Below are positions 16,128 to 52,096 of a stretch of DNA of 64,000 bases, one piece after another. A program made the position numbers and the translations under genes. Within the stretch, counting starts at the first letter, position 1, and the number at the start of each line of letters is the position of its first letter. Origin of the DNA: Streptomyces sp. NBC_00224. Its GTDB lineage: Bacteria > Actinomycetota > Actinomycetes > Streptomycetales > Streptomycetaceae. The stretch covers positions 5,371,501 to 5,435,500 of the forward strand of contig NZ_CP108106.1 of NCBI RefSeq assembly GCF_041435195.1. Direction: 5' to 3'. Under the pieces are notes generated by a model. The model did not search any database, was not told the DNA's origin, and was given only the letters and a program-made list of their open reading frames with translations.

Positions 16128-16141
16128 ATCAGTACGGGTGC

Positions 16142-16174: not shown

Positions 16175-16187
16175 TCGGCCCTTTGGG

Positions 16188-37645: not shown

Positions 37646-38311
37646 TCACGCCTTCAGCCCGGTCTCGCGGAGAGTCAGGTTGAGGCGGCCGCCGGGCAGG
37701 CCGGTGATCGCCGGGTCGCCTGTGCCCGGGAGGACCTTCGGTACGCCGTGGTAGGCGAAGCGTGAGGCGCCGCCGAAGACGAAGAGGTCGCCCGAGGCGA
37801 GCTCGACATCGGTGTAGGGGCGGCCCCGGTCCTCGGTGTTGCCGAAGCGGAAGAGGCAGCTGTCGCCGACGCTCAGGGAGACCACGGGCGCGCCGGACCG
37901 CTCGTCCTTGTCCTGGTGCATCCCCATGCGCGCGTCGCCGTCGTAGAAGTTGATCAGGGCGGTGTCGGGGGAGTACCCGTCCCCGGCGGCGGGGTCGTCG
38001 TACGCGTCGGCCACGGCGGCGCGGCCCAGCGCGGCGAGCCAGTCGGGGAAGGGGGCGACGGGGCGGCCGTTCACGTCGTCGGCGGTGCGGGTGTACCGGT
38101 AGGGCTGCCAGTGCCAGCCGACGCAGACGGTCTGCACGGACATGACGCCGCCGCCCGGCAGCACGGTGTGCCGGATGGGGACGGGCCCCCGCGCCCACTC
38201 CCGGCAGGCGGCCACCAGCTCCCGCTGCCGTTCGGGCGGAAGCCACCCCGGCACGTGCACGGCGCCGGGTGCGACGACGGTGCGCGGCCGGGGGAAGAGG
38301 GCGTCGCTCAT
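37646..38311 (-). CDS. alkB: AlkB-type 2-oxoglutarate/Fe(II) dioxygenase
   Basis: 221 residues. It repairs 1-methyladenine and 3-methylcytosine in DNA or RNA by oxidative demethylation. Iron ligands: His and Asp in MGMHQDKDE, distal His in FAYHGVPK; the AlkB-specific GRLNLTLRETG at the end holds the 2-oxoglutarate-binding Arg. Its ATG overlaps the ogt stop by 4 nt, so the two repair genes form one operon with different chemistry for the same damage. Upstream promoter of ogt shows four palindromes. Confidence 0.9.
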   Translation of the reverse strand: MSDALFPRPRTVVAPGAVHVPGWLPPERQRELVAACREWARGPVPIRHTVLPGGGVMSVQTVCVGWHWQPYRYTRTADDVNGRPVAPFPDWLAALGRAAVADAYDDPAAGDGYSPDTALINFYDGDARMGMHQDKDERSGAPVVSLSVGDSCLFRFGNTEDRGRPYTDVELASGDLFVFGGASRFAYHGVPKVLPGTGDPAITGLPGGRLNLTLRETGLKA

Positions 38312-38853
38312 CTGCCGGGACTGGCGAGGCTGCTGGGGCTGCCGGGTGTCGCCACCAGGGCTCCTTCGAGCCCCAGCAGGCGCTCCTTGCGCTCCAGGCC
38401 GCCCGCGTACCCCTTCAGGGTGCCGTCGGAGCCGATGACACGGTGGCAGGGGCGTACGACGAGCGCGGGGTTGCGGCCGATGGCGGTGCCGACCGCGCGC
38501 ACCTTCACCGAGGAGGCGCCGATCCGGCGGGCGATCTCCCCGTACGAGGTGGTGACCCCGTACGGAATGGAGTCCAGCTCCGCCCAGACCTGCCGCTGGA
38601 ACTCGGTGCCCGTGCCGGGCGCGTACTCGATGTCGAAGCGGGTCAGCTCGCCGCCGAAGTACGCCCGCAGCTGGCGGGCGATCTCCTCGAAGGCCTCCGG
38701 TGCCCGCCGCCAGCCGTCCCGGACGACGGCGGCGCCCTTCTGGCCGGGCATGGAGAGCGAGACCAGCGCGGTCCCGCCGTTCGCGGTGGCCGACTCCTCA
38801 CCGACCAGGAGCAGTTCGCCCAGCGGGCTGTCGAGGGTCGCGTAGACCGTCAT
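38308..38853 (-). CDS. ogt: Methylated-DNA-protein-cysteine methyltransferase
   Basis: 181 residues. N-terminal ribonuclease-like domain and C-terminal DNA-binding domain with the acceptor site VVRPCHRVIGSDGTLKGYAGGLERKERLL. It transfers a methyl group from O6-methylguanine to its own Cys and is used up. First gene of an ogt-alkB operon (4-nt overlap). The promoter region has four CTCACGTAyGAG-type palindromes, which suggests adaptive or damage-linked control. No Ada N-terminal activator domain is present. Confidence 0.9.
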   Translation of the reverse strand: MTVYATLDSPLGELLLVGEESATANGGTALVSLSMPGQKGAAVVRDGWRRAPEAFEEIARQLRAYFGGELTRFDIEYAPGTGTEFQRQVWAELDSIPYGVTTSYGEIARRIGASSVKVRAVGTAIGRNPALVVRPCHRVIGSDGTLKGYAGGLERKERLLGLEGALVATPGSPSSLASPGR

Positions 38854-38880
38854 CGCACGTTCCTTTCCTTGCGACGAGTG

Positions 38881-39013: not shown

Positions 39014-39033
39014 TCAGCGGTAGTTCACGAACT
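39014..39033. other. Left attachment site (attL core)
   Basis: TCAGCGGTAGTTCACGAACT is identical to 51323-51342, which is the 3' end of yajQ. Flanking bases differ on both sides, so the exact duplication is 20 bp. Confidence 0.85.
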
Positions 39034-39049
39034 TCCCCCATGATCCCCT

Positions 39050-39062
39050 GACCTGCACGGAC
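39050..39062. repeat. Left inner 13-bp inverted repeat (arm-type site)
   Basis: GACCTGCACGGAC, the exact reverse complement of GTCCGTGCAGGTC at 51299-51311. It lies 16 bp inside the left core. Confidence 0.7.
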
Positions 39063-39359
39063 TCGCAAAGAGCCCGGTTGACGTGCGGAAACTACGTTCA
39101 GTAGTTGCCGCCGTTTTCCGGGCTCTTCCTGGCTCTTGTGCCCTGGGTGTGCCCTCGGGCACAAGGGCGCGCCTCTGGTTCCCCGGCCCGTCGCATTGGT
39201 CGTACGACGGGGCCGTTCGGTTGCAGGGGTGGGCCGTGCCGCGTTCGTGTGAGGTGTCCGGGAAAGCAGCGCCCCGTGCTGCTCCGGGGCCTAGGGTGGG
39301 CGCCGATTCGGCCGGGGCGGCTGCTACCGGTGTCGGTGCGGTCCGCCTCGGAGGGCACG

Positions 39360-40604
39360 TTGAGCTACCTGCGCTTGCTGCTGCGGCGGTCCGTGTTGGT
39401 GCTGTGGCTGGCGCAGAGTCTGTCTGTCCTCGGGGATCGCCTGTACGCGCTGGCGGTCATGTGGGTGGTGTACGCCTCGACAGGCTCGGCGTCCCTCATG
39501 GGGCTGGTCGCCGTCGCGGAGTCCGTTCCGTACATCGTGCTGGGGAGCGCAGGCCGACGGCTGGTCGCCCGGTTCTCCTCGTTCGCTTCGCTCGCGTGGG
39601 TGGACGGGGCGCGCGCGGTGGTGGCCGTCGCGCTGCCGTTCGTGTGGTCGCCGGACGTGCACGGGTTCGCCCTGCTGCTCGGCGGGGTGCTGCTGCTCGG
39701 CACGCTCGGCGCCCTGTTCGACCCGAACCTCGGCGCCCTGGTGCCCGATCTGGTCGAGCCGGAGAAGGTGCAGGAGATCACGGGCCTGCTCGACCTCACG
39801 GGGCGCATTGCCCGGATCGCGGGCCCGGCAAGTATCGGCTTGCTGCTGCTCGTCGTCTCCGAGGTGCAGCTTTTCGCGCTGGACGGGGTCACGTTCGCGG
39901 TGTCTGCGGTGGCGCTCGGCTGGCTGGCGCGCCGGTACGCCATGGCGGCCGGTGGCGGGGCGGGCGAGCGGCCTCGCAAGGCACGGGCGGCGGTCCGTGC
40001 GTGGCCGGTGCTGCGGGCGCACCCCCGCGTCGGGCTCGCGGTCGGGCTGCACGGCGTCGCGCTGTTCTGCTCGGCCGTGACGGCGGTGGGCATGCCCGCG
40101 CTCCTCGCCACCCGGTATGGAGCCGGAGCGGCCGTCTACGGGCTGGTGACGGCCGCTGTGGGCGTCGGGGCGCTGCTGGGCAACCCCTTGGCCAGCAACC
40201 GGCGTACGGGCGCCTGGCTGGCCGTGTACTGCGGCGCGTGGATGGTGCAGGGTGCCGCGACGGCGTGCATGGGACTGATGTTGCAGCTTCCCGCCTTGAT
40301 GCTGCTCGCCCTGGTGACCGGCCTGGTCACCCCCGCGACGAGTGTCACCCTGCGGGCGCACCTCGGGGCGTTCGCCCCGGCCGAGCGGCTGCGGCTCATG
40401 TCTGTGGACCAGACCGTGATCCGTACCGGGGGCACGGCCGGAATGCTGCTCGTGCCATTCCTCGTCGGTGCCTCGCCGCGCGGCGCATTCGTGGCGGGCG
40501 GCATCATTGTGGCGGGGTCGGCGCTCGCCGCCCTGCTCGTCTCCTCGCAACTGCCGCGGTCTGATTTGCCCGTGACGGGGGTCAAGACGCCCGCTCAGAT
40601 TTAG
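39360..40604 (+). CDS. MFS transporter, element cargo
   Basis: 414 residues. TTG at 39360 has GGAGG 5 nt upstream and opens LSYLRLLLRRSVLVLWLAQSLSVLGDRLYALAVMWVVY, the usual first helix of the enterobactin exporter/MefA-like MFS group with the D-R-L-Y-x-x-A motif; the longer frame from 39105 includes non-membrane sequence and crosses the att region. About 12 helices. Likely a drug or metabolite exporter. It is 330 bp inside attL. Substrate unknown. Confidence 0.75.
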   Translation: MSYLRLLLRRSVLVLWLAQSLSVLGDRLYALAVMWVVYASTGSASLMGLVAVAESVPYIVLGSAGRRLVARFSSFASLAWVDGARAVVAVALPFVWSPDVHGFALLLGGVLLLGTLGALFDPNLGALVPDLVEPEKVQEITGLLDLTGRIARIAGPASIGLLLLVVSEVQLFALDGVTFAVSAVALGWLARRYAMAAGGGAGERPRKARAAVRAWPVLRAHPRVGLAVGLHGVALFCSAVTAVGMPALLATRYGAGAAVYGLVTAAVGVGALLGNPLASNRRTGAWLAVYCGAWMVQGAATACMGLMLQLPALMLLALVTGLVTPATSVTLRAHLGAFAPAERLRLMSVDQTVIRTGGTAGMLLVPFLVGASPRGAFVAGGIIVAGSALAALLVSSQLPRSDLPVTGVKTPAQI

Positions 40605-40768
40605 TAGCTGATAAGGAGTCCATCTCCCGCGGCCGCGCATGAATGATCGAAAGTGATCAGATCCAGAGTCGTTTGGTCGTTTGAGTTGCTAAGTCAACTT
40701 CTCGACGCTACCGCTGACTTGATCCAGAAGGCGGCTTCGCTTACATACCGTTCCGAGCCGTTAGAGTG

Positions 40769-40812
40769 ATCCCTCGAAGCCGAAGAAGCGGACGGTTTCT
40801 TCGAGAGAGGGA
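40769..40812 (+). promoter_or_regulatory. Hairpin just upstream of the 76-residue gene
   Basis: ATCCCTC pairs with GAGGGAT at the ends and CGAAGAA with TTTCTTCG inside, 9 nt before the ATG at 40822. It could hide or expose the ribosome site. Confidence 0.4.
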
Positions 40813-40821
40813 TGCACATAC

Positions 40822-41052
40822 ATGCGAATTACAGAGCGACTGGACGCACCAAGTGGGCGGTGCCTGAATGAACACAACTGTCCAGCAGTATTCTCGCTAT
40901 CATCGGGTGACGTTGCCTTTATCGGGCGCACGGCCCCACCCGAGCTTAGAGACACTCTCCCCGTCGGCTCTGGCGTCGGCGAGGGGGAGGAGCTCGTCGT
41001 GGTGCCACGGGAGGTTCTCATCAGTGCCGGGTGGAACCCATCCGTCACTTGA
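40822..41052 (+). CDS. Small conserved hypothetical protein
   Basis: 76 residues. The pattern MRITERLDAPSGRCLNEHNCPAVF then a short beta segment GDVAFIGRTAPPELRDTLP and EELVVVPREVLISAGW recalls a streptomycete family of about 70 residues often found beside XRE-type regulators. It contains two Cys and no membrane segment or signal peptide. No function known. The ribosome-site region is folded in the hairpin at 40769-40812. It ends 29 bp from the convergent DUF6082 gene. Confidence 0.6.
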   Translation: MRITERLDAPSGRCLNEHNCPAVFSLSSGDVAFIGRTAPPELRDTLPVGSGVGEGEELVVVPREVLISAGWNPSVT

Positions 41053-41081
41053 GTTGCCCGGTGTGGCCGGATAAGCGCCGT

Positions 41082-41807
41082 CTATCCGGCCACACCCTCA
41101 CCCCTTAGCTGGCGCAGATAGGCAAGCTCCACTATTTCGTAGAACTTTCGCATAGTTCCACCATGGGGTGTAGTTCGTGCTCGCGCAGCCCGCGTCCCCT
41201 CCCAAAAGCTGCGGACTATTTCGTTACTGAACAAGTGACAGAGGGATGCTTCCACTTCTTCATCGGTGAAGTATCCTAGCTCGTGGCACATGCAGTGGTG
41301 CGAGATGATCAAGTTACAGTACATGTACTGCTTCCTGCGGTCGGCAGATGTCCCGGTTTCATGGTCAGGCCAGCATTGCATCAAGAGCGGGTCGTCTATG
41401 GCCATCTCGGCCAGCTTTATATGCCGCGCCCGCACCGCTGCCTCCGCGGAACGCTGGGTCGTCTTATGTTGATTTTGTGAGGTTTCACGCTGCAGCGTAA
41501 TTTCAGCCATCTGCGCTTCGAGAGCTTTGCGCTGAAGAGAAAGCTCCGCCGTCTGGGCTTGGAGGGCTTCACGGTGCAAGCGCGCCTCATCGCCTTGGTG
41601 GCGGAACGTCCGTGCCAGGTACACGAGGACTACGACGGACGTAGCCGCTGCGGCAGCGCCGTAAGCTTGCCCGGCATTCCCAGTCGCCGTTGACTGAACG
41701 ACGGGAAGACTCGTAAGTGCCAACGTGAGGCCGACCGACCCTGCGCACGAGGCCAACGTAGTGAGAGCCAGAATATAGATCTCGCGTGTACGACTCGATG
41801 CTGCCAC
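41082..41807 (-). CDS. DUF6082-like membrane protein
   Basis: 241 residues, GTG start. Two membrane helices at about residues 9-30 and 45-66, a charged coiled-coil with EARLHREALQAQTAELSLQRKALEAQMAEITLQRE, then a soluble domain with AIDDPLLMQCWPDHETGTSADRRKQYMYCNLIISHHCMCHELGYFTDEEVEA. I recognise the last part as the DUF6082 pattern. Role unknown. GC content is low compared with the rest of the window. The upstream gap is about 560 bp. Confidence 0.7.
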   Translation of the reverse strand: MAASSRTREIYILALTTLASCAGSVGLTLALTSLPVVQSTATGNAGQAYGAAAAATSVVVLVYLARTFRHQGDEARLHREALQAQTAELSLQRKALEAQMAEITLQRETSQNQHKTTQRSAEAAVRARHIKLAEMAIDDPLLMQCWPDHETGTSADRRKQYMYCNLIISHHCMCHELGYFTDEEVEASLCHLFSNEIVRSFWEGTRAARARTTPHGGTMRKFYEIVELAYLRQLRGEGVAG

Positions 41808-42366
41808 GTCGACCCCGCCCTTACTCTTGTGTATCCCGCTTCGCGATCAGGATATTCCCACAACAGGTACGGGAGGAACGCGGCATTGGAGGCACGCGCG
41901 GTGCAGCAGGCGCATGCCGCCCCGGCGGATGGAACTGGAAAGCGTGGCCTGAATTCGACATGCATCGAGACGCCCACCTCTCACTAGCAGCAGCAGAGGT
42001 GAACCCTTTTACACCGGCAAGGATTCTGTGCATGCTGGAGGGTCGGGAAGTGAACGAAGGACGTGCATCTGTGCGCCTCCCGTGCGCCGCTTCCCATAAG
42101 GTTTAGAATCCCGCAGAGGAAGGCTGTACCCATAGCAGTATCAACCATATTCAACTGACGTCTATCGAGCGCCCACCTGCCTTTCAGATAACCCCTTGCC
42201 ACTCTAGGGCTTCGCTTTGTCAGCCCCACGGTAGATATGCCATAGTGAAATAGCCTCCAAGCAGCCACGACATCGATACCTCGGCCCCCGCTGCGCGGTG
42301 CAGGCGCAACAGGGGCCGAGGGGATTGCGGGGAGGCAGCCCGCTCGGGCGGCCCAGTGCCCAGCGG
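41808..42366. other. Gene-poor low-GC stretch
   Basis: Both strands have short open frames (for example 41984-42394 minus) but none has a ribosome site, recognised domain or Streptomyces codon pattern. I regard it as non-coding or decayed foreign DNA. Confidence 0.55.
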
Positions 42367-42819
42367 CTATGCGGTCGGCTGACCGGGCTTCCACTGGGCT
42401 ACTTCAAGCGCGAGCCAATGGTCGACGGTGACGTTCTCGAAGGGAACGCCGATCTCCTGGTAGATGCGGGTGTGCATGGCGCCGAACCAGGCGCCGCGGC
42501 GGTCGTCGAAGAACGTGCGGTCGTACCAGGCGACGCCGAGGATGACGGTCCCGCCACCGTTCTTGTTGTCGGGGTCGGCCTCGAAGTACGTGCACTCCCA
42601 GTCCCAGAGCATCTGTTCCTCGGGGCGGGAGCGCAGCCGCTCGTCGCTGGCGCGCAGGTGCTCGACGCACCGCTCGACGGTGGCGGCGTCCGGGCAGTAG
42701 TAGCGGCAGTCGCTGAACGCGATCACCTTCTTGCTGCCGCGCCGGGCGGGGTCGGCGTCTTCACCGACGAGGACCCGCACGCGGGTGATCGGCGGGGCGC
42801 CGGTTTCGAGGATGGTCAC
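42367..42819 (-). CDS. Conserved hypothetical, 150 aa, cargo
   Basis: No function recognised. The protein MTILETGAPPITRVRVLVGED then SDCRYYCPDAATVERCVEHL and NNGGGTVILGV-like segments is soluble, acidic and has no membrane helix or signal. It follows the PhyH-like gene by 37 bp, likely the third gene of a transcript from 43959. Aromatic-rich segments (DWECTYFEADP, AWYDRTFF) might form a small ligand-binding pocket. Codon use is normal for the genome. Confidence 0.65.
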   Translation of the reverse strand: MTILETGAPPITRVRVLVGEDADPARRGSKKVIAFSDCRYYCPDAATVERCVEHLRASDERLRSRPEEQMLWDWECTYFEADPDNKNGGGTVILGVAWYDRTFFDDRRGAWFGAMHTRIYQEIGVPFENVTVDHWLALEVAQWKPGQPTA

Positions 42820-42856
42820 GGTTGTGCTCCTCTCGTTCCCGTGGTGCCTTGTGGGG

Positions 42857-43570
42857 TTACCAGTCCGATCCCGTGAGCGGGTACAGGCTGGGGTGATGGG
42901 GGCCGCTCGACCGGATGGCGCCGGGAGCGACGTAGCGGATGTTCAGGCCGATGCGGACGCCCGCTGCGGTGTTGCTGTCCGAGCGGTGGAGCAGCCGTAC
43001 GTCCATCAGGCAGGCTTGGCCCGCGTTGAGTGGAAGCCATACGCCCCGGTCGTGGGGCGCGTTGACCATGCCCTGCACGCCGAGTGCCTTGCCCCGGCCC
43101 GCGTCGTGCTCCTCGCGGTCGTAGTCGAGGTACCCGGCGGCGTGCGAGCCGGGGATGACCTGTAAGCAGCCGTTGACCGTGGTCGCGTCGGTCACGGCGA
43201 GCCAGGCCGCGACGGCGCGTTCGGGGTCGAGCTGCATGCGGGGGTTGGTGCCGTCCTGGTGCCAGGGGACCGCGAAATCACGGCCGGGCCACTTGAGCAT
43301 CAGGAAGGTGTTCTCGACGGCGACGGATTCGCCGATCGTCGTCTGTACCCGGTGGAGGAGTTGAGGGGAGCGGACGGCGTGCGCGGCCCAGTCGAAGCGC
43401 AGGTGGGCGTCGCGTACGACCTCGGTCTGCTCCGCCCGGTGTTCGGCGATCATCTCGGACGCGCGGGCGCGGGCGCGGCTGCTGGTGTTCCAGTCGAGGC
43501 CGCTGCGGTAGCCGGTTTCCCCGAGAGGGCTGGGCCCGGCGTAGCTGATTTGCGTGGGACGGCGCGTCAC
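42857..43570 (-). CDS. Phytanoyl-CoA dioxygenase (PhyH)-family protein
   Basis: 237 residues. GTG at 43570 with GGAGG; the frame runs open to 44143 but that overlaps the upstream gene. Iron ligands: His and Asp in FAVPWHQDGTNPRMQ, distal His in LLHRSDSN; the 2-oxoglutarate Arg is probably in VRIGLNIRYV. Also GSHAAGYLDYDR, the family's 'PGSH' turn. Hydroxylates a small molecule; substrate unknown. It overlaps the 130-residue gene by 4 nt. Cargo within the element. Confidence 0.8.
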   Translation of the reverse strand: MTRRPTQISYAGPSPLGETGYRSGLDWNTSSRARARASEMIAEHRAEQTEVVRDAHLRFDWAAHAVRSPQLLHRVQTTIGESVAVENTFLMLKWPGRDFAVPWHQDGTNPRMQLDPERAVAAWLAVTDATTVNGCLQVIPGSHAAGYLDYDREEHDAGRGKALGVQGMVNAPHDRGVWLPLNAGQACLMDVRLLHRSDSNTAAGVRIGLNIRYVAPGAIRSSGPHHPSLYPLTGSDW

Positions 43571-43959
43571 TGGTCCGCCTCCTCGCCGGTGGTGGTCGCG
43601 GCGACCAAGGCGGCGGCAAGCTCGTCGGCCGGGGTGTGGTCGGGGCCGTTCGTCGGCTCGCTCACCCACCGAAGCAGCCCGTCCCACCCGGGCGGCGCGA
43701 GCACGACCCACGATCCGGCGCCGAGCGCCCGCGTCCCGTCCTGCCGCCAGTCGCGGGCCGTTCCGGGCGGGGTGAGGAAGTACGCCTGTCCGCTGCACAG
43801 ATCGTGGAGTACGGGGCCGACGGGCACGCCGCGCGTCTCCATGTCCCGGACCGCCCGCACCCCCACGTCGGCCGAGACTCGTACCGCGTCCCAGTCGTCG
43901 CCAGCCGCGAGTAGCCTCGGCTCGTTGAGCTTGCGGGTCCATGCGGGTCTGCGCTGCAT
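43567..43959 (-). CDS. Conserved hypothetical, 130 aa, cargo
   Basis: No known function. ATG at 43959 with GAGGAG upstream. DDWDAVRVSADVGVRAVRDME, SGQAYFLTPPGTARDW and GAGSWVVLAPPGWDGLLRWVSEPT follow a pattern that I have seen in small streptomycete proteins encoded beside XRE regulators; the C-terminal region resembles part of the bifunctional primase/polymerase fold without its catalytic residues. First gene of a three-gene unit and divergent from the XRE regulator by 167 bp. Confidence 0.6.
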   Translation of the reverse strand: MQRRPAWTRKLNEPRLLAAGDDWDAVRVSADVGVRAVRDMETRGVPVGPVLHDLCSGQAYFLTPPGTARDWRQDGTRALGAGSWVVLAPPGWDGLLRWVSEPTNGPDHTPADELAAALVAATTTGEEADQ

Positions 43960-44053
43960 CGCTGTCGGTCTCCTCGGTGAATGAACGTGGGGAGTTGAGG
44001 GAACCGCGCAGGGCAAAGGGCGAACCAGCGTTGATGCGGACGCGGAATACGCG

Positions 44054-44070
44054 TATGCGTCGGACGCATA
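44054..44070. promoter_or_regulatory. Palindrome upstream of the XRE/TPR regulator
   Basis: TATGCGTC-G-GACGCATA, 8-bp perfect arms, in the divergent promoter 57 bp before the ATG at 44127. Likely a dimer-binding operator for both directions. Confidence 0.55.
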
Positions 44071-44126
44071 TCCCGGCTCGCAAACCCGGTGCGCCGTACC
44101 TACCGTTGGGGGAGAGGCAGGCACGC

Positions 44127-45392
44127 ATGAACTGGTCGGACAACGCCGCGAGAGAGGCGTCGCGGGCCGGTGACTACGGGCGGGTGATCGAACTCGCGCG
44201 CCGGGCCGCTCGATTGACGCAGCGGCAGCTCGGCGACGCCTGCGGCTTGTCCCAGTCAGCCGTATCCCGCATGGAGAAGCGGGGAGCGGCCGAATACAAC
44301 ATGACCACCCTCGCGAGGGCCGCCCACCATCTTGGCATTGCGCCCGGACTGGTCGGCCTCGCCGACACCGGCGCCGCCCCGGGCGCGCTGGGGGAAGGGC
44401 TCGACCCAGTGGAACGGCGCAAGTTGCTCGCCGGTGTCGCCGCCGTAGCGGCCACGCCGGTACTGAGCGGGTCCGCGCAGCAGCACCCGGTTTGGGGAGC
44501 CGAGCAGGCGGACGTGCTGCGCGTCGCGACGACCGCGTTTCGGCGCATGGATGCCACTGTTCCCGCGCGGCAGCTCGCCGACACCGTGCAGGGGCACATG
44601 CGGCTCGTACAGGTCGTGGCGGCACAGGCGCCTGACCAGGCCACCCGGGCGCGGCTCGCGGCCGTCGGAAGCGAAGTGGCCAGCCTGGCCGGTTGGCTGA
44701 GCTGGGACATGGCCGACGCGGGCTCGGCTCGTACCTGGTACGGGGCGGCGATCAAAGCGGCCCGGCGCTCGGGTGACCCGTTGCTGATCGCGTATCAGCA
44801 GGGCAGTCTCGCGCAGTTCGAGGTCGAGGCCGGGAACGTCGCGCAAGGGCTGAGCCTGATCCGCAGTGCCCGACGGCAGCTCGGCGGCGAACGCCCTGCC
44901 ATCGCGGCGGCATGGCTGTCCGCCCTCGAAGCGGTCGCGCACGCCACTGCGGGCGACGAGCGGGCCTCCGAGCGGGCGCTGCTCGCGAGCGCGGCCGAGG
45001 TCGAGCTGCTCCCGGAGGAACAGCCGCCACCGTGGCCGTGGGTCTTCGCGTTCGACCTGCGTAAAGTCGCGGCGGCCCGGGTGACTTGCGGGGCCCGCCT
45101 GGCACGTCCCCGCTGGGTCCTCACCTCACTGGACGACGCCACTGCCGCGCTCTCCTCCCACCACGAGAAGCAGCGCGCCCTGCTTGGCCTCGACGTGGCG
45201 AGCGGCCACATGGCGTCCGGTCACCTCGACACCGCGTTCGCGCTCGCCGCCCGCTCTCTCGACGTAGGGCTGCGCCTGCGTTCCGGTCGGGTCGTCGAGA
45301 GGGCCCGCACCTTCCGGCGCGGCTACTCCTCGGCGACCCCGCCCGCCATCGTCCGCGACTTCGACACGCGGCTGCATGACGCCTACCTGTAG
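44127..45392 (+). CDS. XRE-family regulator with TPR-like C-terminus
   Basis: 421 residues; ATG at 44127 with GGAGAGG upstream. Helix-turn-helix at about 15-70: ELARRAARLTQRQLGDACGLSQSAVSRMEKRGAAEYNMTTLARAAHHLG. Then LLAGVAAVAATPVLSG, a TAT-like hydrophobic stretch frequent in this group, and about 300 residues of helical repeats (for example WYGAAIKAARRSGDPLLIAYQQGSLAQFEVEAGNVAQGLSLI). The group often senses peptides or small molecules through the repeat domain. It is 13 bp before the SLOG-like gene. Confidence 0.85.
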   Translation: MNWSDNAAREASRAGDYGRVIELARRAARLTQRQLGDACGLSQSAVSRMEKRGAAEYNMTTLARAAHHLGIAPGLVGLADTGAAPGALGEGLDPVERRKLLAGVAAVAATPVLSGSAQQHPVWGAEQADVLRVATTAFRRMDATVPARQLADTVQGHMRLVQVVAAQAPDQATRARLAAVGSEVASLAGWLSWDMADAGSARTWYGAAIKAARRSGDPLLIAYQQGSLAQFEVEAGNVAQGLSLIRSARRQLGGERPAIAAAWLSALEAVAHATAGDERASERALLASAAEVELLPEEQPPPWPWVFAFDLRKVAAARVTCGARLARPRWVLTSLDDATAALSSHHEKQRALLGLDVASGHMASGHLDTAFALAARSLDVGLRLRSGRVVERARTFRRGYSSATPPAIVRDFDTRLHDAYL

Positions 45393-45405
45393 ACGAGAGG
45401 GAGAC

Positions 45406-45882
45406 ATGAGAGTCGGGATCACTGGTCACCGGGGGCTACCCCCCGAGGTCGAGCGGCAGACACGCCGCGCCCTGGCCGAGGCTGTCGCGGCGTACGACCC
45501 TGCCGAACTGGTGGGCGTAAGTTGCATCGCGGACGGGCCCGACGCCTGGTTCGCGCAGGCCGTCCTCGACTACGGAGGCCGGATTGAGGCCGTGGTGCCT
45601 GCCGAGCAGTACCGCAGTGATCTCCCCGACTGGCACCACCCGACGTACGACGCGCTGCTGCGCCGAGCGTCGGCCGTGCACCGCACAGGGCTCGACGGCT
45701 CCGACTCGAACGCCCACATGGCCGGTAGCGAACTGCTCGTCGACCAGGTCGACACGCTGCTCGCCGTCTGGGACGGACAGCCCGCCCGGGGATACGGAGG
45801 CACAGCCGACGTCGTGGCCTACGCCGAAGGCAAGGGCGTGCCGGTACGGGTGCTGTGGCCCGAGGGAGCGACACGGGGCTGA
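45406..45882 (+). CDS. SLOG-like nucleotide-binding domain protein
   Basis: 158 residues; ATG at 45406 with GGGAG. The Rossmann-like SLOG pattern is visible: GITGHRGLP at the N-terminus, GVSCIADGPDAWFAQAVLDYGGRIEAVVPAEQY in the middle and LLAVWDGQPARGYGGTADVVAYAEGKGVPVRVLWP at the end. SLOG/DUF1273-type domains bind nucleotides or their derivatives. No effector domain is fused. Tandem with the XRE/TPR regulator, so a nucleotide-sensing or ligand-making pair is a reasonable inference. Confidence 0.75.
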   Translation: MRVGITGHRGLPPEVERQTRRALAEAVAAYDPAELVGVSCIADGPDAWFAQAVLDYGGRIEAVVPAEQYRSDLPDWHHPTYDALLRRASAVHRTGLDGSDSNAHMAGSELLVDQVDTLLAVWDGQPARGYGGTADVVAYAEGKGVPVRVLWPEGATRG

Positions 45883-46278
45883 TTCTCTTCCCGCGCGCGG
45901 GAGGGCGGCGACCGTCCCGGGCGCGTATGGCCCTGGCATTGTCAGTGGGGTGAGGTAATCGCGCGCGCCCGCGCGCAAGGCACGACCGGTCGCAGCGCGA
46001 CGTTTCGGTGCGGCGGGGGACGTGGGGGACGCGTTTTTCGGGCTGCTCTCTCCCTTACCTCTCCCCCTTCTCGTCAAGACAGAGAGGAAGGAGGGGCGCA
46101 GCGTCCCCCGCGTCCTCCGGTGGGGTGCCTCGGACGCTGTAGCAGGCAGAGGCGGGCGCGCAGGGGGACGCTGGGTGATGCGGGGTGCGTCCCCGGCCGT
46201 CCCCCACGCGTCCCCGGGCAGAGGTGAGCCCCGGGCGGCGGGATGCCGCTCCGGGGCGCGTCGAGGGCGGGTGTCAGG
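45883..46278. other. 396-bp non-coding region with repeats
   Basis: Next to the replication genes. Contains the iteron-like cluster (46015-46215) and a polypyrimidine stretch facing a polypurine stretch (46046-46096). No gene is supported. Confidence 0.6.
46015..46215. repeat. Iteron-like cluster of GGGGGACG/CGTCCCCC motifs
   Basis: Seven copies in 200 bp: forward at 46015-46022, 46024-46033 and 46163-46171; reverse at 46101-46109, 46187-46194, 46198-46205 and 46208-46215. Located beside the helicase gene. Possible replication origin of the element. Confidence 0.5.
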
Positions 46279-47850
46279 TCATGACGGCGGGGCGTAGACG
46301 ACAGTCCACACCTTGCCGTGCTTGTTGCTGCCCGAAGCGCGGGCCATGTGGATGCCCCGTGCGCGGAGCGCGGGGGCGACCTGGCGGATACGGGCGCTGA
46401 GGACGGCGGGAGTCTTGGGCCAGCCGTCGGCCAGGCCGCGCCCGTCGCTGCCGAGCAGCCGGTGAAGCTCGGCCATGGTGCCTGTCCAGTCCCCAGGTGG
46501 GAAGGCAGGCGAGGCGGCCCACTCGCGCAGCGCGGCGGCGACCGGATGGCCGTCGAGGACCGTCTCGTTCAGGGCGTCTTGCGTGGCGTGGAACGCGTCG
46601 AGGCTGCGCCACCCGGTGACGCGGTCGAGGGCGTGCAGCAGCTCGGCGAAGTCGGCCAGGCGCGGACGCTCAGTCAAGTCGGCAGCAGCATAAGGAAGTT
46701 CGGCCCAAGCCTCGGCGGCGAGGTCGAGCAGCGCGCCGAGGATGCGCGGGTGGGCCTGCTCGTACGCTGCCCACAAGGCGCCTGCGGTGCGCCGCTTGTG
46801 CCGGGGGATGGGGGCGAGTTCGAGCGGCAGCATGCGCTCGGCGAGGTCGTTGCGGAGTGCGCCGAGGTCGATTCCGGTGAGCAGTACGGGACGTTGGTAG
46901 GTGAGTACGTTCACGTCGTCGTCGGTGTAGAGGGCACGGGTCACCTGGGCGTCGCCGGTGACGATGCGGCACAGGGCGTCGGACAGCCAGCCAGGCAGCC
47001 CCGAGAGGTTGTCGAGGGCGAGCACCCACCCGGCGGCTGTCGTGGGCCCGAGGTCGCGCAGGTTCTCTGGAGCCTGGCGCAGCGGGGCGCGGGCGCCCTC
47101 GATGACTCCGGCGAGCATCTGCCCCGACGTGCTCTTGCCCGTGCCCTGCTCACCCGTGAGATAGGCGACCGGGCGCGGGATGTCCGGGCGCAAGGCGGCA
47201 AGCAGCCAGCCGACGGCGAGCGGCAGCGTCTCGGCGGTGAACGGCAGCAGCGCGGCGAACTCCTCGATGCCCGCCCGCCAGCCGCCCGCTACCCGGTCCG
47301 GACGGGGCAGGGTGCGAACCAGCCGACTGCGGCGCCACACAGGCCCTGTCTCGACGTCCGGGTACGTGAGCGTCCAGCCGTCCGGGGCGAGGCGCACCGA
47401 CTCACCGTCGGGGCGCCCGAGGTCGAGCCACGTGACGGTGGGGTCGTCCGGGTCGGCGGCGACGCGCAGGGGCAGCTCGACCTCGGCGGCGTGCATGGCG
47501 AGCGCGTCGAGCACCGCCACGGCGTCGGCGAGCGCAGACTGCGAGGGTGTGCGGTTGTGCTCGGCGACGTACGCGCGGATGAGGTGCTGCCGCAGGCTGC
47601 CCGTACCGGTGTGTGCGGTGGCACGCAGCGGCACGGCGACGGGTGGACCGTCGTACGGCACGGCGTAGGGGGCGCCGTTGTGGTGGAGGTACCGGAAACG
47701 GTTCTGCCCGAGTATGCGCAGCACCTCGGCCTGCGGCGGCTGGCGTTCCTGCTGCGGCGCACGCGACGGCTCCGTGTCCCGTTCCGGGCGGCGGAAGGGG
47801 ACGACGGAACGCGCTGCGGTGGTCGGATCAAAGCTCGGGGCTTGGATCAT
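46279..47850 (-). CDS. ATP-binding helicase-like replication protein
   Basis: 523 residues; ATG at 47850 overlaps the primase-polymerase by 4 nt. Walker A is GEQGTGKST near residue 230, followed by WVLALDNLSGLPGWLSDALCR (Walker B-like, L-A-L-D-N) and ARRNDLAER-type sensor. The overall order matches the AAA helicase/ATPase partner of the Prim-Pol of actinobacterial mobile elements. It should unwind or open the element's origin. C-terminal part (about 430-523) is a winged-helix-like segment. Confidence 0.75.
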   Translation of the reverse strand: MIQAPSFDPTTAARSVVPFRRPERDTEPSRAPQQERQPPQAEVLRILGQNRFRYLHHNGAPYAVPYDGPPVAVPLRATAHTGTGSLRQHLIRAYVAEHNRTPSQSALADAVAVLDALAMHAAEVELPLRVAADPDDPTVTWLDLGRPDGESVRLAPDGWTLTYPDVETGPVWRRSRLVRTLPRPDRVAGGWRAGIEEFAALLPFTAETLPLAVGWLLAALRPDIPRPVAYLTGEQGTGKSTSGQMLAGVIEGARAPLRQAPENLRDLGPTTAAGWVLALDNLSGLPGWLSDALCRIVTGDAQVTRALYTDDDVNVLTYQRPVLLTGIDLGALRNDLAERMLPLELAPIPRHKRRTAGALWAAYEQAHPRILGALLDLAAEAWAELPYAAADLTERPRLADFAELLHALDRVTGWRSLDAFHATQDALNETVLDGHPVAAALREWAASPAFPPGDWTGTMAELHRLLGSDGRGLADGWPKTPAVLSARIRQVAPALRARGIHMARASGSNKHGKVWTVVYAPPS

Positions 47851-48917
47851 GCGGCGGCCCCGGTGAGCGCGCGCGGGTGCCGCTCGCCTGCGGCCAGACC
47901 GGAGCGGATCGCGGCCTCGGCCTCGCGACTGGGCAGCCCTGCGTGCTGGGCGGCGTCGGCGAGGACATCGGCGACCTGAGCGCGGTCGAGGCGGCCCGCG
48001 CCGCACAGGGTGCCGAGGTTGAACGCGGCCCGGTTGAGCGCGTCGTTGCGGGTACCGGGCTGCGCCTCGGCGACGGCGCGCAGCTCGGCCTCGACGGCGG
48101 CGGCCACATACCCGCCGCCCATGCCGCGCGAGCGCCACGGCAGCGTGATGCGGGGCCGCTCGGGGCGTACGCGGTGCCCGGTGCGGTCGAGGTCGCGAGC
48201 GAGCCATACGGGCAGCTCGGCGACCGTGCGGCAGTCCCCGAGCGCGGTGTACGCGCCCGCACGGGTGACGGTGCCGGGTGCGACGGCGTACGACGATCCG
48301 GCACGCACGTCCAACTGCCAGCCGAGCGCCCCCGCCTGCGGGCGCCACTGCGTACCGGCGGGTGCCCGGAACCAGTAGTGCACTCCGCCCGAGGGCGTGC
48401 GCACGGTGAGCGTTTCCGGGACGCAGCCGGGCAGGGGGGCGCGGCGCGCCTCGACGAGCAGTGCGAGGACGTCGCGGCCGTCGAGGACGCTGCCCGGGGC
48501 GAGGTCGTCAGGCAGTTCGACACCTGGCAGCAGGCGCTCGGGATCGCTCGGAACCTCTCCGCCGTGGGTGTCGACGTCGAGGATCACCAGCCCGGACGGC
48601 CCAGCGGCGACGCCGACCCCAGCGGCGGGCGTGCGCGTCCACCATTCGGTGATCCGGTCGGCGTCGGTGGCGGCGGCGAGGACCCCGTGACAGGCGTGCC
48701 CGTCGGCGTGGCACGGGCAGGCGTGTCCGTCGTGCTCGACATACGAGGGGTTCGGGTGGTCGGCGGTGCCCGGCGAGCAGCGGGCGCAGCCTCGTACGGG
48801 CACCTTCAGGCCGGGGGCGAGCGGGTGCACCGCGTATCCCTGAGCGGCCAGCCACAGGGCTACGCGGAGCGGATCGGAGGGCGAGGCGGTCGAGGGGCGG
48901 GCGTGCGTAGTGTGCAC
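47847..48917 (-). CDS. Bifunctional DNA primase/polymerase (Prim-Pol)
   Basis: 356 residues; GTG at 48917 gives MHTTHARPSTASPSDPLRVAL. Motifs: AAQGYAVHPLAPGLKVP at the start, four Cys/His (CARCSP, HACPCHADGHACHG), catalytic acids in VILDVDTHGGE, and GGVHYWFRAP for the third motif. Primase and polymerase activity on the element DNA is the family role. The stop overlaps the helicase-like gene by 4 nt, so both come from one transcript. Confidence 0.8.
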   Translation of the reverse strand: MHTTHARPSTASPSDPLRVALWLAAQGYAVHPLAPGLKVPVRGCARCSPGTADHPNPSYVEHDGHACPCHADGHACHGVLAAATDADRITEWWTRTPAAGVGVAAGPSGLVILDVDTHGGEVPSDPERLLPGVELPDDLAPGSVLDGRDVLALLVEARRAPLPGCVPETLTVRTPSGGVHYWFRAPAGTQWRPQAGALGWQLDVRAGSSYAVAPGTVTRAGAYTALGDCRTVAELPVWLARDLDRTGHRVRPERPRITLPWRSRGMGGGYVAAAVEAELRAVAEAQPGTRNDALNRAAFNLGTLCGAGRLDRAQVADVLADAAQHAGLPSREAEAAIRSGLAAGERHPRALTGAAA

Positions 48918-49063
48918 GGTGGAGCGTCCTTCCGAGCGGACCGGGTGGTGAGAGACCCGGTGCCGCTGGTGGTCACATACGACGTGGGCGGGGAGGGCGT
49001 GAGGGCCGTCGGCGTAGCTGCGCCGACGGCCCTTGTCCGTGGTGCGGGCGCATGGCGCGCGCA

Positions 49064-49285
49064 TCACGCGGCGGGGTCGGTGGCCTGCTCGTCGAGCCAC
49101 TTCTCGATGTCGGACCAACGGGCGCGCAGGTGGCGGCCGACCTTGATCATGCGGGGACCGCCCCCGCGATGGCTCCACTGGTAAACGGTGGCGAGCGGCA
49201 CGCCACAGTAGTCGGCGAGTTCCTGCGCGGTGGCGAGCCTGCGGCGGGCAAAGTCGGCGGCGTCGGTGATCTGAGCGCGGGGCAA
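49064..49285 (-). CDS. Excisionase/MerR-like DNA-binding protein (Xis)
   Basis: 73 residues; TTG at 49285 with AGGAG 7 nt upstream; the 93-residue version starts within the operator region. A winged HTH of the Xis/HTH_17 type: ARRRLATAQELADYCGVPLATVYQWSHRGGGPRMIKVGRHLRARWSDIEKWLDEQ. It likely directs the integrase to excise. Divergent from the XRE regulator with palindromic operators between. It is upstream of the Prim-Pol gene on the same strand. Confidence 0.85.
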   Translation of the reverse strand: MPRAQITDAADFARRRLATAQELADYCGVPLATVYQWSHRGGGPRMIKVGRHLRARWSDIEKWLDEQATDPAA

Positions 49286-49298
49286 CAGTTGACTCCTA

Positions 49299-49311
49299 TG
49301 TCCTTTCGACA
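49299..49311. promoter_or_regulatory. Operator O1 next to xis
   Basis: TGTCCTTTCGACA, near-perfect inverted repeat. Together with O2 (49389-49401) it brackets the divergent promoter region. Confidence 0.55.
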
Positions 49312-49388
49312 ACTCCCCATGTCGAGGAGTTGATCTCCGTGTCACCTTGCCGATGGCCCGCGTTGTATGTCAACGTGACTTTTGGAAT

Positions 49389-49401
49389 TGTCGTATCGAC
49401 A
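49389..49401. promoter_or_regulatory. Operator O2 next to the XRE regulator
   Basis: TGTCGTATCGACA, perfect 13-bp inverted repeat. The wider block GACATAGGAGT (49398-49408) is the exact inverse of ACTCCTATGTC (49292-49302); both include the ribosome sites of the two divergent genes. A third inverted pair CAACTCC/GGAGTTG lies at 49310-49332. Confidence 0.65.
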
Positions 49402-49412
49402 TAGGAGTGAGT

Positions 49413-49979
49413 GTGGCGGTCCCCGAATCTGCGAGTGACGTCGTTGCCCAGCGGGCCCAAGAACTACGGAAGCGCCAGGGGCTCACGGCAAAGGGCCTCG
49501 CCGAACGCTGCGCCTTGATGGGCGCGCCCGGCATGACCGCCTCGGTCATCGCCAACATCGAGAGCGGGCGCCCCGACCTGCGCGGCCGTCGACGGCGGCA
49601 GATCACCCTCGAAGAGTGGCTGATCCTGGCGCAGGCTCTGCATGTGGCGCCGATCCACCTGCTCGTACCGGTCGACGACGAATCCCCGCGCTACGAACTC
49701 ACCCCGGAGGAGCCGCAGCCCACGCAGGGGATGCGTCGGGAAGGTGTCGGGTGGGTCCGGGAGTGGATCAGGGGCGAGGCGCCGCTGACCTTCACGAACG
49801 AACGCATCTACCGCAGCGAAGTCCCTGCGGACGAATGGAAGTCCCGCCAGCGGCGCGAGCGGGAGGGCTACGAGATCAACAAGCAGATCTGGGAAGCCCT
49901 GGGGGCGGCAGGCATCACGCCCAAGTCGCCGACCGGCGAGGCGGACCGAGAAGAGGGCGGGGCGGGCGCGAATGGCTGA
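49413..49979 (+). CDS. XRE-family regulator, element control
   Basis: 188 residues; GTG at 49413 chosen because AGGAG lies 5 nt upstream. Helix-turn-helix: VVAQRAQELRKRQGLTAKGLAERCALMG and a later MTASVIANIESGRPDLRGRRRRQITLEEWLILAQALHV helix pair. The remaining 90 residues are charged. Divergent to xis, and it probably represses both genes through O1 and O2. Its 3' end overlaps the integrase start by 8 nt, so integrase may be under the same promoter. Confidence 0.82.
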   Translation: MAVPESASDVVAQRAQELRKRQGLTAKGLAERCALMGAPGMTASVIANIESGRPDLRGRRRRQITLEEWLILAQALHVAPIHLLVPVDDESPRYELTPEEPQPTQGMRREGVGWVREWIRGEAPLTFTNERIYRSEVPADEWKSRQRREREGYEINKQIWEALGAAGITPKSPTGEADREEGGAGANG

Positions 49980-51294
49980 GGTCTACGACCGGTGGCACAA
50001 GTCCCGTCCGGGCAAAGACGACAAGCCGTGCCCAGAGCACACCAGCAAGACGCGCAAGCTCGTTCCGAGCGGCGAGCACGGGAAAGGGAAGCGCTGGCAG
50101 GTCCGTTGGCGCGACGCGAGCGGGAAGCAGCGCAAAGAGAACTTCGACAAGCGGGCCGCAGCCGAGACCCGCGCGGCCACGGTGAAGGCCGACCTAGACC
50201 GGGGGCTGTACGTCGATCCGGCTGCGGGCAAAGAGAGCTTCCGAGCCGTTGCCGAGCGGTGGCGCACCTCGGCGGTGCACAGACCGACCACTGCGTCGCG
50301 CGTCGAGCGAGGGCTGCGGAATCACGTCTACCCGACGTTCGGTGACCGACCCGTGGCCAGCATCCGGACCTCGGACATACAAGCCTGGGTCAAGGACCGG
50401 GCACAGGTGCTTGCACCGTCGACGCTAGAGGTCACGTACGCCTACGTCGTCACGCCCCTGCGGACGGCCGTCCGGGACCGAATCATCGCGAGCAACCCCT
50501 GTGACGGGGTACGGCTGCCACGGCAGCGCAAGGCCGAGATCGTGCCGCTGCACGCCGACGCCGTACGGGCGCTCATAGACGCGTCGCCCGCCCGCTACCG
50601 CGCCTTGTTCCTGCTCGCCGCATCATCCGGGCTGCGTCAGGGCGAGCTGTTCGGCCTCGAAGTCGACGGTGTCGACTTCCTGCGGCGCGAGGTAACGGTG
50701 CGGCAGCAGATCATCGACCCGGAAGACGGCGAGCCCTACCTCGGCGAGCCCAAGACGCACGAGAGCTACCGCACAGTGCCGCTCACCAAAGCGGCGGTGG
50801 ACGCGCTCGCCGTGCACCTCGAACGGTTCCCCGCGCCCGAGGTGAGGATCGAGGACCGGACCGACCCCCGGAAGCCGAAGCAGCGCACCGCGCGCCTGAT
50901 CTTCCCGAACCAGGACCGCAAGCCGGTCCGGCGCGGAGCCTGGGCGCACGTATGGCGTAGGGCGAGGCAGAACGCGAACAAGGCCCTCGCGGCGGCGTAC
51001 GAGCAGGCGCTCGCGGCATGGGTTCGGAGAGGTAAGCCCGAGGGCGCCGAGCCCGTCCGCGTCGAGGTCCCGGACGGGGCGAGCCTGCACGACCTGCGGC
51101 ACTTCTACGCCTCGCTGCTCATCAAGCACCGCGAGAACGTCAAGACGGTTCAGAAGCGGCTCGGCCACGCCAAGCCGTCGATCACGCTCGACACCTACAC
51201 GCACCTGTGGCCGGACGAGGAGGACACAACGAGGGCCGCCGTCGAGGCCGCCCTCGGCGATGTGCCCCCGTTGTGCCCTGCTCACTCAGCCTGA
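49972..51294 (+). CDS. Tyrosine recombinase / integrase
   Basis: 440 residues. Catalytic residues: Arg in SGLRQGELFGL (about 223), Lys/His in HDLRHFYASLLI, Arg and His in the same and LGHAKPSITLDTYTHLW, with the Tyr nucleophile in TLDTYTHLW. N-terminal part (about 60-190) is a core-binding SAM-like domain preceded by an AP2-like arm-binding segment WQVRWRDASGKQRKENFDKR. The gene ends 4 bp before a 13-bp arm-type site and 29 bp before the yajQ stop. It catalyses integration into and excision from the yajQ 3' end. Confidence 0.92.
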   Translation: MAEVYDRWHKSRPGKDDKPCPEHTSKTRKLVPSGEHGKGKRWQVRWRDASGKQRKENFDKRAAAETRAATVKADLDRGLYVDPAAGKESFRAVAERWRTSAVHRPTTASRVERGLRNHVYPTFGDRPVASIRTSDIQAWVKDRAQVLAPSTLEVTYAYVVTPLRTAVRDRIIASNPCDGVRLPRQRKAEIVPLHADAVRALIDASPARYRALFLLAASSGLRQGELFGLEVDGVDFLRREVTVRQQIIDPEDGEPYLGEPKTHESYRTVPLTKAAVDALAVHLERFPAPEVRIEDRTDPRKPKQRTARLIFPNQDRKPVRRGAWAHVWRRARQNANKALAAAYEQALAAWVRRGKPEGAEPVRVEVPDGASLHDLRHFYASLLIKHRENVKTVQKRLGHAKPSITLDTYTHLWPDEEDTTRAAVEAALGDVPPLCPAHSA

Positions 51295-51298
51295 CAAC

Positions 51299-51311
51299 GT
51301 CCGTGCAGGTC
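51299..51311. repeat. Right inner 13-bp inverted repeat (arm-type site)
   Basis: GTCCGTGCAGGTC, 11 bp inside the right core and inverse of 39050-39062. In the circular form the two would flank the core. Confidence 0.7.
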
Positions 51312-51322
51312 AGACCACTTGA

Positions 51323-51342
51323 TCAGCGGTAGTTCACGAACT
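51323..51342. other. Right attachment site (attR core) in the yajQ 3' end
   Basis: TCAGCGGTAGTTCACGAACT. On the minus strand it encodes the last residues of YajQ (FVNYR) and its TGA stop, so integration rebuilds the gene end. Confidence 0.88.
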
Positions 51343-51811
51343 GCAGCGCGAAGTCGAAGTCCTTGCCCTTGAGCAGGGTCTGAACGGCCTGGAGGTCGTC
51401 GCGGCTCTTGGAGGAGACCCGCAGCTCCTCGCCCTGCACCTGCGCCTTGACGCCCTTGGGGCCCTCGTCGCGGATGACCTTGGCGACCTTCTTGGCGTTC
51501 TCCTGCGAGATGCCCTCCTCGATGGAGGCGAAGATCTTGTACTCCTTGCCGGAGAGCTGCGGCTCGCCGGCGTCCAGCGCCTTGAGCGAGATCCCGCGCT
51601 TGACCAGCTTGGTCTGGAAGACGTCGAGGATCGCGTTGACGCGGTCCTCGGAGTTGGCCTCCATCAGGATCTTCTCGCCGGACCAAGCGATCGACGCGCC
51701 CACGTTCTTGAAGTCGTAGCGCTGCGAGATCTCCTTCGCCGACTGGTTGAGGGCGTTGTCGACCTCCTGCCGCTCGACCTTCGAGACGATGTCGAAACTG
51801 GAGTCGGCCAT
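51323..51811 (-). CDS. yajQ: YajQ-family nucleotide-binding protein
   Basis: 162 residues, the usual YajQ length; ATG at 51811 ([23 protein letters not shown]). Two ferredoxin-like alpha/beta repeats; [10 protein letters not shown] and [36 protein letters not shown] are conserved. Proteins of the family have been reported to bind cyclic di-GMP or other nucleotides, and the streptomycete role is not known. The 3' end serves as the attB of the 12.3-kb element and is preserved in attR, so the gene should be functional. tRNA-Tyr lies 190 bp upstream, on the opposite strand. Confidence 0.92.
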
Positions 51812-52085: not shown

Positions 52086-52096
52086 CACTGGGTGAG

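What the first reader, a model, noticed from the sequence alone, without database searches (positions are those of the whole stretch)
39014..51342. Integrative element targeting the 3' end of yajQ
An exact 20-bp direct repeat bounds the region, and the right copy is the final codons and stop of yajQ. The integrase gene lies against the right side. Seen directly: repeat, flanks that differ outside it, integrase, xis, primase genes. Known: most actinomycete integrative elements use tRNA genes; use of yajQ is not one I recall. The left repeat is next to the ogt promoter, so the element split the original yajQ-ogt neighbourhood.
Basis: partly seen in the sequence, partly recalled or inferred. Interest (0 to 1): 0.85.

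Follow-up and report, generated by a model that had tools for sequence, protein, structure and literature searches.

The report
Streptomyces mobile element inserted at yajQ
A 12.3-kb piece of mobile DNA in a Streptomyces chromosome has inserted itself at the very end of the ordinary gene yajQ, where it brings its own copy of the gene's last letters so the gene stays whole; relatives sit at the same spot in other Streptomyces, and this landing site was not found described in the papers searched.

Summary
An exact 20-bp repeat (39014-39033, 51323-51342) bounds a 12.3-kb block; the right copy is the last codons and stop of yajQ. A sister genome (G168) has one copy, no block, about 94% identity on both sides and yajQ beside ogt: the empty site. 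In a 392-genome Streptomyces sample 27 carry an integrase relative (E <= 1e-80): the 13 closest abut yajQ, 13 of the other 14 show none within 1.5 kb, one is cut off by a contig end. Ends of 18 elements share one plan: TGACCTGC-like repeats at +31 and +61 left, inverted at -22 right. In 9 of 15 end pairs the Arg-stop bases differ, yet all encode Arg-stop: the crossover lies in CGGTAGTTCACG and the element supplies yajQ's stop. The element has int, repressor, xis, Prim-Pol and Rep but no recognised transfer or virion gene: not an AICE by definition, PICI-like in layout. Relatives at the site carry TraB-like, terminase, capsid or tape-measure genes, so helper-dependent transfer is likeliest but unproven. 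New attB; known kind of element (compare dusA islands).

The parts
39014..39033 (.). left attachment site (chromosome to element junction), displaced end of the ancestral yajQ
51323..51342 (.). right attachment site = last codons and stop of yajQ
39048..39056 (+). arm-type repeat CTGACCTGC (+31 from the core)
   Evidence: at +30 to +32 in 15 of 15 left ends within one mismatch
39078..39086 (+). second arm-type repeat TTGACGTGC (30 bp further on)
   Evidence: at +60 to +62 in 15 of 15 left ends within one mismatch
51305..51313 (-). inverted arm-type repeat GCAGGTCAG (-22 from the core)
   Evidence: same offset in 18 of 18 right ends within one mismatch
49972..51294 (+). int, tyrosine recombinase, 440 aa; R222 K261 H373 R376 H399 Y409 taken as the catalytic set (by recalled motif)
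   Evidence: PF00589 E 6.8e-22; these columns invariant in 9 aligned sequences
49413..49979 (+). XRE-type HTH regulator, probable repressor, overlaps the int start
   Evidence: HTH_31 E 3e-4, 21.5 bits, under its cut-off of 27; homologues in 15 of 18 elements, window included
49064..49291 (-). xis, HTH_17 excisionase-type protein
   Evidence: PF12728 E 1.7e-10; TIGR01764 29.3 bits, cut-off 28.8
47847..48917 (-). bifunctional DNA primase/polymerase (start uncertain)
   Evidence: PF09250 E 9.7e-38
46279..47850 (-). Rep: P-loop (GEQGTGKST) replication protein, 523 aa, no Pfam family over cut-off
   Evidence: plasmid relatives; homologue P0234 carries PF09250 as well
45406..45882 (+). 158-aa protein, unknown (weak phrog_289, E 1.9e-5); no homologue found in the other 17 elements
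44127..45392 (+). NsdA-family HTH regulator
   Evidence: NF053720 E 1.2e-59, 202.9 bits over cut-off 75
43567..43959 (-). 130-aa protein, unknown; no phmmer homologue in the other 17 elements, but a weak tblastn match (39% over 72 aa) in L007
42857..43570 (-). PhyH-type 2-oxoglutarate oxygenase (cargo)
   Evidence: PF05721 E 7.8e-24
42367..42819 (-). 150-aa conserved cargo protein, unknown; 90-91% identical over 144 aa in L004 and L005
41082..41807 (-). DUF6082 protein
   Evidence: PF19560 E 5.6e-34
39336..40604 (+). MFS transporter (cargo; start uncertain)
   Evidence: PF07690 E 5.7e-17 on 39249-40604
51323..51811 (-). yajQ (host target gene, intact)
   Evidence: PF04461 E 2.5e-59
38308..38853 (-). 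ogt, ancestral downstream neighbour of yajQ
   Evidence: PF01035 E 2.3e-31; adjacency in relatives

Best explanation
A 12.3-kb site-specific integrative element whose tyrosine integrase recombines the element's attP with attB, the last ~20 bp of yajQ. Supported by comparison of relatives: the crossover lies within CGGTAGTTCACG (CGGTAGTTC if two decayed elements are trusted), and the element carries its own copy of the last base of the Arg codon and the stop of yajQ, so the gene stays whole while its original end is moved 12.3 kb away beside ogt. Inferred from anatomy: Int binds the three TGACCTGC-like arm repeats; the HTH protein represses; on induction xis, Prim-Pol and Rep (divergent operon) excise and replicate the circle. 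Inferred and weaker: with no transfer, mobilisation or virion gene recognised it travels by a helper, either a conjugative element or plasmid, or a phage that packages it.
For: Repeat and flanks; empty site in sister genome, flank pieces 94.1-94.7% identical and 91.7% in the 109-bp piece next to the left repeat; ogt left of yajQ in 25 of 38 fetched single-copy sites; of 27 genomes with an integrase relative the 13 closest (70% or more) have it beside yajQ; 9 of 15 end pairs differ in the Arg-stop bases and all 9 left remnants still encode Arg-stop, as a true gene end would; arm repeats at fixed offsets in 15 of 15 left and 18 of 18 right ends within one mismatch; catalytic columns conserved; xis and Prim-Pol families; Rep homologue joined to Prim-Pol in P0234.
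Against: No attP junction in viral contigs or in 392 genomes, so excision is not shown. In 6 of 15 pairs, the window among them, the Arg-stop bases are identical and say nothing on who supplies the stop. The integrase tree does not show the yajQ users as one clade: the label needs 3 changes, well-supported branches force at least 2, and deep forks are open. L006, inside one yajQ group, uses a merR gene. The HTH match is under its Pfam cut-off. The transfer step rests on absence and on relatives whose gene sets disagree.
Confidence: 0.85

Rival explanations
1. A degraded actinomycete integrative and conjugative element (AICE) that lost its TraB/spread operon and is now immobile or moved in trans by an intact AICE or plasmid.
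For: The replication pair is plasmid/AICE-like: Rep relatives in 31 plasmid records, 23 of them Streptomyces, Prim-Pol relatives in 355, Rep in 2 phage records of one phage. Two relatives at yajQ have TraB-like FtsK proteins: L093, both ends found, PF01580 E 1.2e-6; L091, left end not found, under the Pfam cut-off but phrog_1358 E 2.4e-27. PMC3218068 (passages read) describes Prim-Pol SCO4617 with SCO4618 in SLP1.
Against: Six of the other 17 elements share this Rep and none of them has a protein clustering with those TraBs, so loss would be old and shared. The divergent order differs from the rep-xis-int operon of pSAM2 (recalled).
Confidence: 0.4
2. A phage satellite of PICI type: kept silent by the repressor, excised and replicated when a helper phage infects, packaged in helper capsids.
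For: Order int + repressor one way, xis + primase + rep the other, 12.3 kb, no structural or lytic gene recognised, as PMC6092414 (passages read) describes Gram-positive PICIs. Relatives at the same site carry terminase small subunit (L092 phrog_83 E 4.7e-35, L095 E 1.4e-19, weak in L019 phrog_2538 E 6.9e-9) and HK97-type capsid (L092, L095).
Against: No terminase or capsid gene in the window element. Its replication genes look plasmid-like. No helper, no induction data. Terminase was recognised in 3 of 18 elements, but only 25 proteins of 8 relatives were put to family libraries, so this count is a lower bound.
Confidence: 0.35
3. Not mobile now: an old insertion fixed by decay, the repeats only a relic.
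For: Decayed relatives exist: L020 and L013 with broken int, L015 with an int fragment, and int tails beside yajQ in 5 of 38 single-copy sites by motif and eye.
Against: In the window int, xis, Prim-Pol and Rep are open frames and the repeat is exact; int is 76-88% identical to six relatives (58-61% to two more), Rep 81-91% to six.
Confidence: 0.15

Closest known systems
dusA-specific genomic islands (PMC4482086; abstract and passages seen)
   Same: An integrase family tied to one protein-coding gene; semiconserved 21-bp attachment sequences; the island replaces the end of the target gene; cargo varies, only the integrase is universal.
   Different: dusA islands replace the 5' end and occur in Proteobacteria; these replace the 3' end of yajQ in Streptomyces. 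Homology of the integrases was not tested.
AICEs (SLP1, pSAM2 and others; PMC3218068 and PMC9513070, passages read)
   Same: Tyrosine integrase, Xis, Prim-Pol plus Rep, Streptomyces host, integration in a conserved core gene.
   Different: No FtsK/SpoIIIE transfer protein in the window element; target is yajQ, not a tRNA gene.
Gram-positive PICIs / phage satellites (PMC6092414, passages read)
   Same: Divergent int-repressor and xis-primase-rep blocks, ~12 kb, no structural or lytic genes recognised.
   Different: No packaging or interference gene recognised in the window element; helper unknown; replication genes resemble those of plasmids.
PAISt of Streptomyces turgidiscabies (PMC4057263, passages read)
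   Same: Integration at the 3' end of a protein-coding gene (bacA) in Streptomyces; its 8-bp palindrome TTCATGAA differs by one base from TTCACGAA in this core.
   Different: A 674-kb conjugative island; relation of the integrases not tested.

Membership tests
AICE | tyrosine or serine integrase | tested here: met
   PF00589
AICE | RepSA, RepAM or Prim-Pol replication module | tested here: met
   PF09250
AICE | FtsK/SpoIIIE transfer protein (PF01580) | tested here: not met
   None of the 11 PF01580 matches of G000 lies in C1:5410514-5422842; none among the 12 element proteins in Pfam
Gram-positive PICI | int and master repressor in one direction, xis and replication genes in the other | tested here: met
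   frame plot and gene calls; that the HTH protein is the master repressor is inferred
Gram-positive PICI | no phage structural or lytic genes, size near 15 kb | tested here: met
   PHROGs (10 of 12 element proteins; DUF6082 and the 130-aa protein not put in), Pfam on all 12; size
Gram-positive PICI | attachment site never used by prophages | tested here: inconclusive
   18 elements compared, none looked like a full prophage, but several carry phage genes
Gram-positive PICI | phage-dependent induction and packaging | not testable with these tools
   needs infection experiments
Integrative element with a protein-coding attB and target-end replacement | direct repeat duplicating the gene end, empty site in a relative | tested here: met
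Integrative element with a protein-coding attB and target-end replacement | gene end supplied by the element | tested here: met
   met for the family: 9 of 15 end pairs differ in the Arg-stop bases, with the crossover on the yajQ side of them; the window's own pair is identical there and cannot show it
Integrative element with a protein-coding attB and target-end replacement | excision as a circle | tested here: inconclusive
   no attP junction in viral contigs or 392 genomes; sequencing reads were not available

The most novel reading that the evidence does not exclude
The yajQ integration module (int-repressor-xis with its arm sites) defines a lineage of Streptomyces hitchhikers that swaps between conjugative and phage-borne life: some members hold TraB/spread-like genes, some terminase and capsid genes, some a lone phage tape-measure protein that could remodel or hijack a helper's tail, and some, like the window's, hold none of these and depend wholly on helpers.
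Probability: 0.3. Interest if true: 0.7.

Novelty: new member of a known kind. Interest (0 to 1): 0.45.

Why it matters
It adds a protein-coding integration site that recurs across Streptomyces, with a natural map of the crossover, arm sites and target-end replacement good enough to design a test of the integrase in laboratory strains. It also shows one integration module shared by elements with conjugative-type and with phage-type genes, which makes the question of how transfer-less actinobacterial islands move directly testable.

Tried and rejected
Chance repeat: rejected. tRNA target: the nearest tRNA (tRNA-Tyr, 52004) lies on the far side of yajQ and holds no copy of the repeat within 2 mismatches. 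Self-transmissible AICE: rejected for lack of FtsK. Defence island: in the 10 element proteins put in (int and the HTH protein at 49413 left out) PADLOC matched only the HTH regions of two. Circular or tandem form: 0 hits. Repressor operators: an 11-bp inverted repeat flanks the xis-HTH gap in the window, but none of that length was found in the 10 relatives checked, so it is not claimed. Fold of Rep: job taken but unfinished at the last poll; no structural claim. PDB sequence search with the Rep profile: best E 0.33. The internal stops listed for eight distant integrases, and one in L011, were looked at in four cases (L071, L074, L078, L011), where they are alignment overruns past the natural end. 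Int-tail fossils: the script flagged 10 of 38 sites; 2 are intact elements, 5 are counted as fossils, and L026, L047 and L052 are not counted (an arm-like 8-mer alone also occurs in L026, which has ogt in place, so that motif alone is no proof).

Not done: a census beyond the 392-genome samples; supplementary tables of the AICE papers (no look-ups allowed), so a yajQ entry there is not excluded; family scans of the cargo of L003, L004, L013, L015, L020, L086, L087 and L104. The gene labelled alkA in my scripts was never tested against a family library; by eye it looks like alkB.
Full report
WHAT IS THERE. The exact 20-bp repeat is at the stated coordinates; its right copy is the end of yajQ read on the minus strand. 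The own genome, 9.18 Mb in 3 contigs, has no third copy within 2 mismatches. Frame plot and start choice give twelve genes: MFS transporter, DUF6082, 150-aa protein, PhyH oxygenase, 130-aa protein, NsdA-family regulator, 158-aa protein, Rep, Prim-Pol, xis, HTH regulator, int. Family matches are. xis, Prim-Pol and Rep run leftward on the minus strand; HTH and int run rightward to yajQ.

EMPTY SITE. The exact 20-mer occurs in 65 of 392 sampled Streptomyces genomes; 3 of them (G000, G269, G290) have two copies. I fetched the places of 40 of the others: G269 and G290 and 38 of the 62 with a single copy. In 25 of the 38, ogt lies left of yajQ, at 77-231 bp in 23 and at 736 and 1068 bp in two. In G168 (L036) both flanks match the window (long pieces 94.1-94.7%, the 109-bp piece next to the left repeat 91.7%) and the 12.3-kb block is absent. 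Of the 13 without ogt, two carry an intact integrase (L027, L054), five an integrase tail beside yajQ by motif and eye, and six stay unexplained.

INTEGRASES BOUND TO yajQ. A scan of GTDB species genomes gave 16 integrase loci: 7 abut yajQ, 2 have yajQ 2.4 and 5.5 kb away, in 7 no yajQ was found on the fetched stretch. A sample of 392 genomes gave 27 with a match at E <= 1e-80. The 13 at 70% identity or more in that call, two of them fragments, abut yajQ; of the 14 at 62% or less, 13 have no yajQ within about 1.5 kb and one (L080) is cut by the contig end where yajQ would be. The two sets overlap: L003 and G328 have the same integrase. On a tree of 34 rows the yajQ label needs 3 changes, with 0 of 500 shuffles as low; but it is not shown to be one clade: well-supported branches force at least 2 changes and deep forks are open. 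Seven short loci were dropped (L013, L015, L016, L081, L082, L084, L085) and L017 and L018 were not put in. L006 (S. caatingaensis), nested in one yajQ group, sits in a merR gene with a 13-bp repeat CGGTAGAAGAGGA.

HOW IT INSERTS. Eighteen right and fifteen left ends were compared; three elements have no left end in the fetched stretch (L004, L091, L092) and L013, L015 and L020 are decayed. Left ends carry TGACCTGC-like repeats at +30 to +32 and again 30 bp on (15 of 15 each, one mismatch allowed); right ends carry the inverted repeat at -22 (18 of 18, one mismatch allowed). In 9 of 15 pairs the four bases before the core (stop codon and last base of the Arg codon) differ between the ends; all nine left remnants still spell Arg-stop, which random decay would not favour. 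To the other side, the 446-454-aa-integrase elements differ between ends at core position 13 (and L104 too), so the switch lies in CGGTAGTTCACG; L015 and L013 differ at position 10, which would narrow it to CGGTAGTTC but both are decayed. The stop of yajQ in the occupied state therefore comes from the element. In the other 6 pairs, the window among them, both ends are identical there and cannot show it. Binding of Int to the repeats is inference from known tyrosine integrases.

WHAT CARRIES IT. The window element has no FtsK match and no recognised relaxase, terminase or capsid gene. Grouping the called proteins of 18 elements at yajQ, window included: int in 17, HTH in 15, xis in 14, a Prim-Pol/primase cluster in 9, this Rep in 7, MFS + 150-aa + PhyH together in 3. 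TraB-like proteins cluster in L091 and L093 only; a tape-measure protein in L090, L091 and L094; terminase small subunit and capsid were recognised in L092 and L095, and a weak terminase match in L019. Only 25 proteins from 8 relatives were put to family libraries, so these are lower bounds; L091 and L092 have no left end, so their outer genes may belong to a neighbour. Rep and Prim-Pol relatives in the plasmid collection are mainly Streptomyces (23 of 31 and 333 of 355 records). These lines disagree, hence the split between the helper-dependent rivals.

WHAT IS KNOWN. Searches of the open-access library: yajQ + integrase + Streptomyces + attachment site, 0 papers; yajQ + integrase, 0 papers; a wider search listed 25 of 2,335 papers, none of the 25 with the word yajQ; yajQ + Streptomyces, 14 papers seen as a listing, none on islands by title, of which passages of PMC3784963 were read (YajQ is SCO4614, abundant in the S. 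coelicolor nucleoid); other name forms, 1 paper, on Xanthomonas by title. PMC9513070 does not name yajQ in its main text, nor PMC3218068. Subscription papers and supplements were not searched. The kind of system is known: dusA islands (PMC4482086) are the nearest parallel.

VERDICT. Real and well supported, new as a target site as far as searched, ordinary as a kind; the open part is how such elements move.

Noticed in passing
L090 10002-12656, L094 8433-11795, L091 8066-11608: Elements at yajQ (L090 and L094 with both ends found, L091 without a left end) carry an 884-1180-aa phage tape-measure protein; no other tail gene was recognised among the few neighbours tested. L091's is 64.8% identical over 76% of its length to that of Streptomyces phage OnionKnight.
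   Followed up: partly
L095 (G139), 11246-18312 in the int-forward orientation: Order int-HTH | xis-PrimPol-helicase-TerS-capsid inside both attachment sites, PICI-like with its own capsid gene; no large terminase or portal among the proteins tested.
   Followed up: partly
L006 1590 and 11360: Integrase 76% identical, nested in a yajQ group, but the element splits a merR gene (identified by eye); the shared CGGTAG start of the core suggests a target switch.
   Followed up: partly
L025, L028, L033, L035, L058: Integrase C-terminal tails directly beside yajQ in genomes without an intact element: probable fossils of earlier insertions.
   Followed up: partly
window 38874-38950: Three copies of a 17-bp ACGAGTGCTCACGTACG-type repeat upstream of ogt, part of the stretch missing in sister L036.
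   Followed up: no
window 52004-52086: tRNA-Tyr lies just upstream of yajQ; Prim-Pol or Rep relatives (37-41%) lie on that side in L045, L054 and L057, so the locus may be a double insertion hotspot (SLP1 use of tRNA-Tyr is recalled).
   Followed up: no
L104 5944-8018, L015 7443-9516: Cargo that looks by eye like small peptide-maturation clusters (radical SAM or ATP-grasp plus methyltransferase); not tested.
   Followed up: no
window 39336-43570: The MFS gene, the 150-aa protein and the PhyH oxygenase occur together in 3 of 18 elements, the 150-aa protein 90-91% identical: a possible small-molecule cassette.
   Followed up: partly
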